A stretch of DNA of 64,000 bases from Bacillota bacterium (GTDB lineage Bacteria; Bacillota; Limnochordia; Darwinibacteriales; JAAYFS01). The notes under the pieces are model-generated. The model worked only from the letters and a program-made list of their open reading frames with translations. It made no database searches and had not been told where the DNA came from. The position numbers and the translations under genes are program-made. How positions within the stretch are numbered: the stretch's first letter is position 1; every line of letters begins with the position of its first letter. Where the stretch lies: positions 1 through 64,000 of the forward strand of contig JAAYFS010000015.1 of the NCBI GenBank assembly GCA_012728115.1, in the 5' to 3' direction. Positions 7,573 through 51,227 of the stretch are shown here, one piece after another.

Positions 7573-7610
7573 AAAAAAAGTGACATTTCTTAGGAAATGT
7601 CACTTTTTTT
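7573..7610 (-). terminator. Intrinsic terminator encoded in the 3' end of nifU
   Basis: AAAAAAAGTGACATTTC-TTAG-GAAATGTCACTTTTTTT, 17-bp perfect stem; nifU stop codon lies in the loop. Confidence 0.85.
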
Positions 7611-46172: not shown

Positions 46173-46219
46173 AAAAATGCACTTAGGAGTAGATCACGGA
46201 TCATACTCCTAAGTGCATT
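46173..46219 (-). terminator. Intrinsic terminator of the pflB-pflA/crp operon
   Basis: AATGCACTTAGGAGTA ... TACTCCTAAGTGCATT 16-bp perfect stem and minus-strand T-run, 35 bp after the fusion gene stop. Confidence 0.88.
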
Positions 46220-46253
46220 CATCCTCTAATAAATCTATGCTTAATGTTGCAGT

Positions 46254-47756
46254 CTAAAGGACATAACTTTCTAATGCTTCAAGGTCCTTAACAATAATAA
46301 CCTTATTACCTACCAACTCAATATATCCTAGTTCTTTAAACTCCCCTAGTTTTCTAGTTATGGTTTCGCGCCTTAAACCAGAATAGTTTCCTAATTCTTC
46401 TCGGTTCATTGACAACTCTAACCTAATACCCTCATCGATCTCGACTCCGATTCGTTTTACAAGTTTGAGCAATAAACCAGCAGTTTTCATTGAAGCATTA
46501 CTGGTAGAAAGTCTTTGAATCAAATCTTCGGCCCATCGAATCCTCTCAAAGCTTTTTACTAATACACTTCTTAAAACTACTGGCGAATCATAGAAGTATC
46601 TGTCAAAAGTGACTTTCGGAATGGCAACCACCTTGCAATCTGTAAGTGCTTGCCCAACATACCGATAAGGTGTTTCAACTAAGAGATTTAATCCCCCAAC
46701 AAAATCACCATCACGATAAATGTAAAAGATCTGCTCTTCACCATCGATGGTATTATTGAATATTTTCATTTGCCCTTTATAAATAAGGTACATAAAATCG
46801 GGTGAATCGCCAGTCTTAAATATATAATCTCCAGCTTTAATGTTCGACAATATCACTTGATTCAAAACATCTTCCACATCATCTTTATCTACATCGCTTA
46901 ACAGGGGCAGTTTTTTTAGCTGCGACAGCATTTCAGCTCGTTCTTCCTCTGAAGCCATCTCCCTATCTTTTAATAGCTTATAATGCTCTTGCTTTTTTAT
47001 TTCATTCTCTTTTCTTTCTTGACGCAAACTCTCCGCAAAGAGTTTATTCGCCAAAATCTCAAAGTCCTTGGCTTTTTCCGTATCCATAGGTTCTACTCCC
47101 TCTAATCGATAGGGTATCCCTAACTCGTGATATTTTTTGACACCTGAAGTATGGTAAGGTAGAATTTCTATTCGATCGACACGATGGTTAATAGGCTTTA
47201 TGGTCTGAACCAAGCCTTTCATTGCTTGTTCATTGTCAGTAAAACCAGGCACCATTACATGACGAATCCAAACCTGACCTTGGAAACCATAGGAATCTAG
47301 GTTGGTAATAAAGTCTAGGTAGGTATCAAAACCGTTGATAGTTGTTAATTCTTCAAAAGATTCGCTATCAAAAGCCTTAACATCGAGAATTAGAGTATCA
47401 ACCAATGGAAGTATTTTCGGATAGTAGGTGGGATTACCAAACCCAGAGGTGTCTATACATATATTATAACCTTCTTGCTTAAGAATTTCCAATGTATTAT
47501 ATAGAAACTCTCCTTGCAACAAAGGCTCTCCTCCAGAAAAAGTTACCCCACCTTCAGCCCCATAATAAGGTTTATATCGTCTAACGATCTCGAGCACTCT
47601 TTGGGGTGTTATTTCCTGGCCTCCCACTCGTTTGAGAGTATCTGGATTGTGGCAGAAAGCGCATCTTAGAGGGCAACCCTGGAGGAAAAATACTGTTCTA
47701 GTTCCTGGTCCATCTACTAACCCCATTGTTTCGATTGAATGTAGGAAGCCTTTCAT
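46254..47756 (-). CDS. Fusion: pyruvate formate-lyase activating enzyme (radical SAM) + Crp/Fnr-family transcriptional regulator
   Basis: Residues 1-~245: GLVDGPGTRTVFFLQGCPLRCAFCHNPDT, GGVTFSGGEPLLQ, IDTSGF, WIRHVMVPGFTD (PflA). Residues ~278-500: cNMP-binding-like barrel and HTH LSMNREELGNYSGLRRETITRKLGEFKELGYIELVGNKVIIV (Crp/Fnr). One uninterrupted frame. Confidence 0.93.
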   Translation of the reverse strand: MKGFLHSIETMGLVDGPGTRTVFFLQGCPLRCAFCHNPDTLKRVGGQEITPQRVLEIVRRYKPYYGAEGGVTFSGGEPLLQGEFLYNTLEILKQEGYNICIDTSGFGNPTYYPKILPLVDTLILDVKAFDSESFEELTTINGFDTYLDFITNLDSYGFQGQVWIRHVMVPGFTDNEQAMKGLVQTIKPINHRVDRIEILPYHTSGVKKYHELGIPYRLEGVEPMDTEKAKDFEILANKLFAESLRQERKENEIKKQEHYKLLKDREMASEEERAEMLSQLKKLPLLSDVDKDDVEDVLNQVILSNIKAGDYIFKTGDSPDFMYLIYKGQMKIFNNTIDGEEQIFYIYRDGDFVGGLNLLVETPYRYVGQALTDCKVVAIPKVTFDRYFYDSPVVLRSVLVKSFERIRWAEDLIQRLSTSNASMKTAGLLLKLVKRIGVEIDEGIRLELSMNREELGNYSGLRRETITRKLGEFKELGYIELVGNKVIIVKDLEALESYVL

Positions 47757-47782: not shown

Positions 47783-50062
47783 TTAAACAAATTCATGGAA
47801 GGTTCGATTGATTACATCGAGTTGATGTTCTCGATTAAGTTGATTGAATCGAACTGCATATCCAGAAACTCGAATAGTTAGATTTGGATATTTCTCTGGA
47901 TTTTCCATAGCTTCTAGCAGAAGTTCCTTATCCATCACGTTGACGTTTAAGTGGAAAGCATCTTGGTTGAAGTAGCCATCTAAAATATTTGTTAGATTGG
48001 TTACTCGTTCTTCTAAATTCTTTCCTAAAGCGGAAGGAATGATCGAAAAAGTATTCGAAATTCCGTCTTGGTTTACTCCTTTATATGGCAGTTTTGCCAC
48101 TGAATTTAAAGAGGCAAGAGCACCTGATTGATCTGCCCCATTCATTGGATTTGCTCCTGGCGCAAAGGGTTCGCCCTTCTTGCGTCCATCAGGAGTAGTA
48201 CCTGTCTTCTTACCATAAACCACATTAGAAGTAATGGTTAGGAGTGAGAGAGTGTGTTCTGCATCGCGATACGCAGGTATCTTCCTTAAGGCTTCCATAA
48301 AGTACTCGCTAACCTTAATCGCAATCTCATCTGCCCGATCATCATCATTGCCATAGCGCGGGAAGCTACCCTCAACTTCAAAATCTACTGCAATTCCTGC
48401 TTCATTTCTAATTGGTCTTACTTTTGCGTACTTTATCGCTGATAGAGAATCCGCTACAATTGAGATTCCTGCTACCCCGAAAGCGATAAATCTGTGTACG
48501 ATCGGATCGTGAAGGGCCATTTGGCTTGCTTCATAAGCATATTTATCATGCATGTAATGAATGGTGTTCATCGTTTCAACATAGATTTTCGCTAGCTTAT
48601 CCATAACCTTTTTGAATGATTCAAGCACAGTCTCATAATCTAAAACTTCATCGGTTATTGGTTCGATTCCAGGGATAACAGTAACATATTCCCCTTTGTT
48701 TTCATACTTTTTTATCTCATCTACTCCACCATTAATCGCGTAGAGTAATGCTTTAGCAAGGTTTGCCCGAGCGCCAAAATATTGCATTTCCTTACCGACT
48801 CTCATCGCGGATACGCAGCATGCAATTGCGTAATCATCTCCGTAGATCGGACGCATTAGATCATCGTTTTCGTATTGAATCGATGCGGTTTTAATACTCA
48901 TTAAAGAGCAGTATTCTTTAAACTCTCTTGGTAATTTATCTGACCATAATACTGTCATATTTGGTTCAGGTGAGGTACCCAGATTGATCAGTGTGTGTAA
49001 AAACCGATAAGCTGTCTTAGTGACTAATGGTCTTCCATCTTCACCAACACCACCGATGGATTCGGTAACCCAGGTTGGATCGCCAGCGAACAATTCATCA
49101 TATTCTGGAGTTCTAAGATGTCTAACCAAGCGAAGTTTAATCACCAATTGGTCGATCAATTCTTGAGCAGTCTTTTCATCGATTAAACTTAACGCCAAAT
49201 CTCTTTGGATATAGATATCAAGAAAAGCGGTGTTGCGGCCAAAACTCATCGCTGCCCCATTGTTCTCCTTAACAGCAGCGAGATACCCGAAATATAACCA
49301 TTGCACTGCTTCATGAGCATTTCGGGCAGGTCTGCCAATATCATAGCCATATTTTGCTGCCATAGATTTTATCTGGTCAAGGGCGCGAATTTGTTCCGAA
49401 AATTCCTCTCTTAACCTGATGGTTTCTTCAGTTGCTGGCGCATCATAATTGTCTTTATCTTTAATTCTCATTTCCTTCAAATAATCAATTCCATAAAGTG
49501 CGACACGGCGGTAATCGCCGATAATTCTACCTCTGCCATAAGCATCAGGTAAACCCGTGAGTAATCCTACCGAACGGACTGTTCGCATTTCTTTGGTATA
49601 GGCATCGAAAACGCCTTGGTTGTGAGACTTCCGATACTCATTAAATTTCTTTTCCATATCCGGATCCATTTCAAGACCGTAGGCATCCAGTGCATTTTTC
49701 ACCATCCTAAAACCGCCATATGGATTCATAATTCTTTTTAATGGCGCATCGGTTTGGAGTCCAACGATCAACTCTCTATCTTTGTCTATATAACCTGGTA
49801 GGAAATTATCAATTCCACTGAAACGTTCTAGATCGACACTGATCGTTTTATTCCTTACCTCGTTTTGGATCATTTCATTTACTTCATCCCAGAGTTTAAG
49901 AGTATTCTCTGAAGCTCCTTCCAGGAAACTTTCATCACCATAATAAGGTTCATAGTTGGCCTGAATAAAGTCTCTCACATCGATCCTTTCCGACCAACGA
50001 CCAGGTTTAAAGCCTGTCCAAGCTTCCGCCATCTCTTTGCGGTCAAATAGATTCTCTCTCAT
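47783..50062 (-). CDS. pflB: Formate C-acetyltransferase (pyruvate formate-lyase)
   Basis: Catalytic Cys pair [18 protein letters not shown]; glycyl-radical motif [30 protein letters not shown]. Confidence 0.97.
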
Positions 50063-50146
50063 TTCTACGTTCCCCCTCCGCCTATAAAAACAACATCCGA
50101 TGATGTCGATTCTTGATATTGATAACTGATATGTCTTAGTAACTTT

Positions 50147-50152
50147 ATTATA
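50147..50152 (-). promoter_or_regulatory. Candidate -10 box for pflB
   Basis: TATAAT on the minus strand (CAAACTTATAATAAAG); hexamer 17 bp upstream is CAGCGT, a poor -35. Confidence 0.6.
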
Positions 50153-50173
50153 AGTTTGAACCTTAAAAAACGC

Positions 50174-50189
50174 TGTGACCTAAATCACT
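50174..50189 (-). promoter_or_regulatory. Candidate Crp-type operator upstream of pflB
   Basis: TGTGA-CCTAAA-TCACT (plus strand), 9/10 to TGTGA-N6-TCACA; centre 50181.5 = -41.5 relative to predicted +1 at 50140. Confidence 0.65.
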
Positions 50190-50387: not shown

Positions 50388-51227
50388 GTGGAAAGAACCT
50401 TTAAACGACGAATTCAAGGGAAGAAAACACGGGATGGCGCTGGAGTAAAGTTGCTGAGAGTATTAGCCGACAATACCGTACCACAGTTCGATCCAATTCT
50501 ATTGCTCGATTCATTCGATAGTACTAACCCTGAGGACTATACCGCTGGTTTTCCGATGCATCCGCATCGGGGAATTGAAACTATTAGTTACGTGTATCGT
50601 GGTTCAATGACTCACCGTGATAGTCTGGGTAATGAGGATACGATTAGCGATGGCGAAGTTCAATGGATGACCGCTGGCTCAGGTATTCTCCATGAAGAAA
50701 AATTGCCAGCAACCGAAAGATTGCTTGGAGTTCAACTCTGGCTTAATCTCCCAGCAAAGGACAAGATGGTTCCTCCTGCTTATCGCAGTATCAAAAACTC
50801 TGAAATTGAAGAAATCCCCATTGAGAACGGTAAAATTCGCTTGCTTGCTGGTGAATATGAAGGACATAAAGGATATATGAGCAAGTATCTTCCTTTGGAC
50901 TATTATGATATCCACCTTGAACCCGAAGGCTCGGTTACGATAAATACTGAGCGAGAAAGATCGATCATGCTTTTTACCCTTGTAGGAAATTCAAGGATTT
51001 CAGGTAAACTAGTCGGAGAAAAGACCGCTGTAAAGCTTACTCCTGGAGATTATGTGGAAATCCAAGCGCTAGACAAAAACGTCCAAGTACTCTTTATCAG
51101 TTCAATCAGTCTAGAAGAACCTGTTGCTTGGGGTGGTCCAATAGTAATGAATACTTTAGAAGAGTTACAACAAGCCTTTAACGATTTGAGAAACAACACC
51201 TTTTTACAAGATAAAATTTCTTACTAA
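50388..51227 (+). CDS. Pirin family protein
   Basis: DPILLLDSF..GFPMHPHRGIETISYVYRGSMTHRDSLGNEDTISDGEVQWMTAGSGILHEE; RBS GAGGAGG. Confidence 0.94.
   Translation: MERTFKRRIQGKKTRDGAGVKLLRVLADNTVPQFDPILLLDSFDSTNPEDYTAGFPMHPHRGIETISYVYRGSMTHRDSLGNEDTISDGEVQWMTAGSGILHEEKLPATERLLGVQLWLNLPAKDKMVPPAYRSIKNSEIEEIPIENGKIRLLAGEYEGHKGYMSKYLPLDYYDIHLEPEGSVTINTERERSIMLFTLVGNSRISGKLVGEKTAVKLTPGDYVEIQALDKNVQVLFISSISLEEPVAWGGPIVMNTLEELQQAFNDLRNNTFLQDKISY

What the first reader, a model, noticed from the sequence alone, without database searches (positions are those of the whole stretch)
50147..50189. Textbook class II Crp-type promoter geometry at pflB
Seen: TGTGACCTAAATCACT (50174..50189) and a minus-strand TATAAT (50152..50147). 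If +1 is 7 nt past the -10 box (50140), the dyad centre (50181.5) is exactly at -41.5. The hexamer at the -35 position (CAGCGT) is poor. Known: class II CRP/FNR activation uses sites centred at -41.5 and weak -35 elements. Inference: the fused regulator, encoded in the same operon, activates its own operon.
Basis: partly seen in the sequence, partly recalled or inferred. Interest (0 to 1): 0.75.

Follow-up and report, generated by a model that had tools for sequence, protein, structure and literature searches.

The report
Self-activating pfl operon, activase-regulator fusion
In this anaerobic bacterium the enzyme that switches on pyruvate formate-lyase is fused to a Crp-type gene regulator, and the DNA in front of the operon carries a binding site, kept at one exact position across more than 50 bacteria, through which that regulator most likely turns on its own genes.

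Summary
On the minus strand, GTGATTTAGGTCAC (50188-50175) lies 22 bp before TATAAT (50152-50147). With +1 at 50140 the dyad centre (50181.5) is at -41.5, and the -35 hexamer is poor. It is not chance. In 20 of 20 pflB promoters from the window's order whose start is visible, the dyad is perfect. The -10 box sits at the same 36-bp phase in 19 of 20, and the inferred +1 is always a purine. The exact composite occurs once in this genome. All 16 exact hits in 37 genomes of the order precede pflB.

Outside the order, the same layout precedes pflB wherever a Crp gene follows pflA, fused or separate: 52 of 53 visible loci in all. Only 1 of 50 pfl operons without a linked Crp has it. The fusion is real and conserved, with an intact activase. 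Its recognition helix keeps CRP's R180/E181/R185, which read GTGA. cAMP-pocket residues are lost.

Best explanation: the fusion is a dedicated, nearly single-target class II activator of its own operon. Related separate regulators carry an FNR-like cysteine cluster that the fused branch lacks. Binding, activation and the signal remain untested.

The parts
50175..50188 (-). GTGA-N6-TCAC dyad (GTGATTTAGGTCAC), predicted operator of the fused Crp domain; centre 50181.5 = -41.5
   Evidence: 20/20 in the order, 52 of 53 linked loci overall
50172..50173 (-). Conserved GC at -33/-32, just downstream of the dyad and inside the degenerate -35 hexamer CAGCGT (-35..-30); not mirrored on the upstream side, so more likely a sigma contact than part of the Crp site (inference)
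   Evidence: G at -33 in 20/20 in the order, 24/33 outside
50147..50152 (-). -10 element TATAAT
   Evidence: 47/52 within 1 mismatch at the exact phase; shuffled mean 1.2, maximum 6
50140..50140 (-). Inferred transcription start (A)
   Evidence: purine at this column in 51/52 promoters; no transcript data
47783..50062 (-). pflB, formate C-acetyltransferase (759 aa)
   Evidence: TIGR01255, 1195.7 bits against cut-off 994.2
47022..47756 (-). pflA part of the fusion: PFL-activating radical-SAM domain (residues 1-245) with CPLRCAFC and SGGE motifs
   Evidence: TIGR02493 243.5 bits (cut-off 231.75); fold match to PFL-AE 3c8f, TM 0.87 by target
46932..47021 (-). Linker (residues 246-275), charged, predicted helical, variable, no cysteine
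46257..46931 (-). Crp/Fnr-type part of the fusion (residues 276-500): cNMP-binding fold and HTH; recognition helix GLRRETITRKL
46175..46220 (-). Intrinsic terminator after the fusion gene (long stem followed by a run of T)
   Evidence: -33.8 kcal/mol for the stretch folded, z-score -5.8

Best explanation
pflB and a pflA-crp fusion form one bicistronic operon. Its promoter depends on class II activation: a dimer of the fusion protein's Crp domain binds GTGATttaGGTCAC centred at -41.5 and touches RNA polymerase there, replacing a missing -35 element. The fusion protein thus activates its own operon and little or nothing else (positive autoregulation), and it also makes the glycyl radical on PflB. 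Shown by sequence comparison: site, phase, conservation, linkage to the regulator, recognition residues, near absence of other targets, intact activase motifs. Inferred: binding, activation rather than repression, dimer state, and the signal. Most likely signal: not cAMP, but the redox, iron-sulphur or SAM state of the activase half, or simply protein level.
For: Site and phase conserved 20/20 in the order. Of 52 linked promoters with a site, 50 have a perfect dyad, 51 have their best -10 at phase 36, and 51 have a purine at +1. Linked Crp present: 52/53; absent: 1/50. All 16 exact composite hits in 37 genomes are pflB promoters. CRP R180/E181/R185 correspond to R463/E464/R468, invariant in the order; PMC1274295 links R180 and E181 to the G and A of the half-site. 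-35 at random level (3.44 mismatches against 3.33 shuffled). The genome's two other Crp-type proteins have QET and RPS in place of RET. Class II sites are centred at -41.5 (PMC7192510).
Against: No expression, start-site or binding data. One linked fusion locus (L126, a short metagenome contig) shows no site in 236 bp upstream of pflB. One control without a linked Crp, L158 (Clostridium thermopalmarium), has a dyad and -10 at the same phase. A repressor could also sit over a -35 region.
Confidence: 0.85

Rival explanations
1. The fused Crp domain binds this site but represses the operon by covering the -35 region.
For: The dyad overlaps -48 to -35.
Against: There is no -35 consensus to cover: TTGACA match is at shuffled level. 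The fixed helical phase to the -10 across 52 loci fits contact with polymerase better than occlusion.
Confidence: 0.07
2. Another Crp/Fnr-type regulator of the cell binds the site; the fused one acts elsewhere.
For: Two more Crp-type proteins are encoded in this genome.
Against: Their recognition helices (GVSQETLSRKL, SIPRPSLSREL) lack the R180/E181 pair. The site occurs with linked Crp genes and hardly ever without them, and no other abundant targets of the motif exist in the order.
Confidence: 0.05
3. A sub-hypothesis compatible with the best explanation: the fusion only co-produces two independent proteins in one chain. The Crp half is constitutively active or senses its own ligand, and the activase half plays no part in regulation.
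For: Separate-gene relatives have the same promoter layout, so fusion is not needed for the site. L135 is a separate pair nested among fused proteins. The linker is variable.
Against: The fused state is kept in all intact loci found in the order and in several other lineages. The fused branch lacks the Fe-S-type cysteines of related separate regulators, so some other input is plausible.
Confidence: 0.45
4. Chance resemblance without function.
For: The dyad alone is expected by chance at 1 mismatch in the window.
Against: Conservation, phase and linkage.
Confidence: 0.01

Closest known systems
E. coli CRP (CAP) class II promoters such as gal
   Same: GTGAN6TCAC dyad centred at -41.5 (PMC7192510), poor -35, recognition residues R180/E181/R185
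   Different: cAMP-pocket residues lost (E72, S83, T127, S128 become G, Y, A, E); one local target rather than a global regulon; fused to an enzyme
FNR (E. coli, A. fischeri; PDB 5cvr and 9qlt)
   Same: Best sequence match of the Crp part among solved structures (4e-20); likewise tied to anaerobic metabolism; many separate pfl-linked relatives have an FNR-like N-terminal cysteine cluster
   Different: The fused protein has no cysteine cluster in the linker; R in place of FNR's V at the specificity position, so GTGA rather than TTGAT
HcpR and Crp2/B. subtilis-type Fnr regulators with CRP-like motifs (PMC1274295)
   Same: CRP/FNR-family regulators of anaerobes, often beside their target, some reading TGTGA-N6-TCACA
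   Different: Targets are hcp and other redox genes; the main text does not mention pyruvate or formate genes; no activase fusion
PFL-activating enzyme PflA (PDB 3c8f)
   Same: Residues 1-245 pass the TIGR02493 cut-off; CX3CX2C and GGE motifs; same fold
   Different: Carries a C-terminal Crp-type regulator

Membership tests
Class II Crp/Fnr-type promoter | Activator dyad centred at about -41.5 | tested here: met
   with +1 inferred from the -10 box and the conserved purine
Class II Crp/Fnr-type promoter | Weak -35, recognisable -10 | tested here: met
   -35 at shuffled level; -10 within 1 mismatch in 47/52
Class II Crp/Fnr-type promoter | Activator binds and stimulates transcription | not testable with these tools
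   needs EMSA/footprint and transcription assays
Crp/Fnr superfamily | cNMP-binding-type domain plus Crp HTH | tested here: met
   PF00027 69.2 bits and PF13545 57.2 bits, both above cut-off; fold match
CRP (cAMP receptor protein) | Above the NCBIfam CRP equivalog cut-off | tested here: not met
   NF008732 55.7 bits against 266
CRP (cAMP receptor protein) | cAMP-contacting residues E72, R82, S83, T127, S128 | tested here: not met
   G, R, Y, A, E in the window (E. coli CRP sequence and residue roles from memory); only R82 is kept, and not outside the order
CRP (cAMP receptor protein) | Recognition residues R180, E181, R185 | tested here: met
   R463, E464, R468
FNR | N-terminal cysteine cluster for [4Fe-4S] | tested here: not met
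   no cysteine in the linker of any fused protein; only one cysteine (C374) in the window's Crp part
FNR | Above the NCBIfam Fnr cut-off | tested here: not met
   NF008365 80.7 bits against 228
PFL-activating enzyme (PflA) | Above TIGR02493 cut-off, CX3CX2C, next to pflB | tested here: met
PFL-activating enzyme (PflA) | Generates the glycyl radical on PflB | not testable with these tools
   enzyme assay needed

The most novel reading that the evidence does not exclude
The activase half is the sensor. Its SAM-bound [4Fe-4S] cluster, or its engagement with PflB, controls DNA binding by the Crp half, taking over the role of the FNR-like cluster found in related separate regulators. The enzyme that activates PFL would then directly report its own readiness to the pfl promoter.
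Probability: 0.3. Interest if true: 0.85.

Novelty: new variant of a known kind. Interest (0 to 1): 0.64.

Why it matters
It shows, by comparison across more than 50 loci, a dedicated class II autoregulatory circuit for pyruvate formate-lyase in anaerobic Bacillota, with the regulator fused to the enzyme that activates PFL. No description was found in the papers searched. The fused and separate versions, with and without an Fe-S-type cysteine cluster, make a natural series for testing how a regulator's sensor can be replaced by an enzyme.

Tried and rejected
Wider regulon: two pattern searches in 37 genomes gave non-pfl hits at or near control level; strong-looking extra hits turned out to be pflB starts on broken contigs (G016, G022, G029) or a second pflB copy (G020). 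Regulation by another Crp of the genome: recognition helices do not fit. Known RNA element in the leader: no Rfam match. Conserved leader hairpin: the window has a weak terminator-like stem, but leaders vary from about 13 to 78 nt, so not pursued. A single origin of the fusion: rejected by an AU test (p = 0.0035; 0.039 without L306), though long branches are present. cAMP as signal: pocket residues lost. Literature: eight searches for activase-Crp fusions or a pfl-linked Crp found no description; most subscription papers are not held. A class-level search around G402 gave nothing new.

Full report
What is there. The minus strand reads AAAAGTGATTTAGGTCACAGCG, then TATAAT 22 bp after the dyad, then the pflB start 126 bp from the GTGA. 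pflB (50062-47783) is a true PFL. After 26 bp follows a 500-residue ORF with a complete PFL-activase domain and a Crp/Fnr-type regulator. A strong terminator closes the unit at 46220-46175.

Is it more than chance? The dyad alone is not remarkable in 64 kb at 1 mismatch. The composite of dyad and -10 box is. In 37 genomes of the order it occurs exactly 16 times, always before pflB, once in this genome. In the 20 pflB promoters of the order that could be read, the dyad is perfect in all, phase 36 holds in 19 and phase 35 in one, and the predicted +1 is always a purine. Most bases between dyad and -10, and the leader, vary.

How far does it reach? The fusion is full length in many genomes of the order. 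The pfl-linked Crp also occurs at 43-59% identity elsewhere in the Bacillota, for instance in Neofamilia massiliensis. There it is either one ORF with pflA (L125, L127-L129, L131, L284, L285, L306) or two adjacent genes, pflA then crp (L130, L133, L135-L137, L226, L277-L283 and others). In a phylum sample of 399 genomes, Crp matches above 295 bits to the profile were pfl-linked, and the 18 checked at 227 bits or lower were not.

Linkage of site and regulator. Of 53 linked loci with pflB's upstream region visible, 52 have the site: 50 perfect dyads and two with one mismatch. The best -10 lies at phase 36 in 51 of these. TATAAT within one mismatch sits at that exact phase in 47 of 52, against a mean of 1.2 after shuffling. 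The exception is L126. Among 50 pfl operons whose pflA has no linked Crp, one (L158) shows the layout. Acetoanaerobium noterae, found later, has separate genes and the same layout. Related genomes are not independent samples, so these counts show a pattern rather than a probability.

The reader of the site. CRP residues R180, E181 and R185 contact the half-site, and R180/E181 go with G3 and A6 of the motif (PMC1274295). The fused proteins keep all three (R463, E464, R468). FNR has V at the first. The genome's other two Crp-type proteins have different helices. So the fused protein is the best candidate in this cell.

Activator or repressor? The -35 boxes match TTGACA no better than shuffled DNA (3.44 against 3.33 mismatches), while the -10 boxes are near consensus. 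In the order the best sigma-A promoter anywhere in 250 bp is much poorer (mean 3.6 mismatches) than in unlinked controls (2.1), which are partly more AT-rich. With the fixed -41.5 phase (class II, PMC7192510) this points to activation. A G at -33 is conserved on the promoter side only, probably a sigma contact (inference).

What does it sense? The cAMP contacts are lost. Many separate pfl-linked relatives have three or four N-terminal cysteines plus one at the start of the domain, in an FNR-like arrangement. On the tree of linked Crp domains this cluster changes once, and all fused proteins lie on the cysteine-free side. The fusion or its reversal happened more than once (single clade rejected, p = 0.0035). 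The activase carries its own CX3CX2C cluster motif. It is therefore possible, but not shown, that it supplies the sensing. The predicted model (mean pLDDT 84, pTM 0.54) has both folds joined by a long helix, with the relative placement uncertain.

Verdict. The kind of circuit is known (class II autoregulation). The activase-Crp fusion and its dedicated, conserved, nearly single-target circuit are, as far as the papers searched show, undescribed.

Noticed in passing
50091-50108 (-): Weak terminator-like hairpin with a T run in the pflB leader, between the inferred start and the ATG; leader length varies in relatives.
   Followed up: partly
L275 (G445:C50:16814-17464): A second, separate Crp close to the pfl-linked type in a genome that also has the fusion; not near pfl.
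   Followed up: partly
L098 (G020:C121): A second pflB copy with the same promoter layout in one genome; paralogue or mixed strain.
   Followed up: no
L002 (G000:C11:4771-5391): Another Crp-type protein of this genome with an N-terminal CHCHDRGTSC stretch, beside a metal-type P-ATPase gene; possibly metal or redox sensing.
   Followed up: no
7580-7603 (+): Long inverted repeat GTGACATTTCTTAGGAAATGTCAC followed by a T run; looks like a terminator.
   Followed up: no
L321 (NZ_CP154629.1): A 2.63-Mb record of Acetoanaerobium noterae labelled as a plasmid; its size and gene content suggest a chromosome.
   Followed up: no
50388-51227 (+): A pirin-like gene diverges from pflB; whether it shares the regulatory region is unknown.
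   Followed up: no
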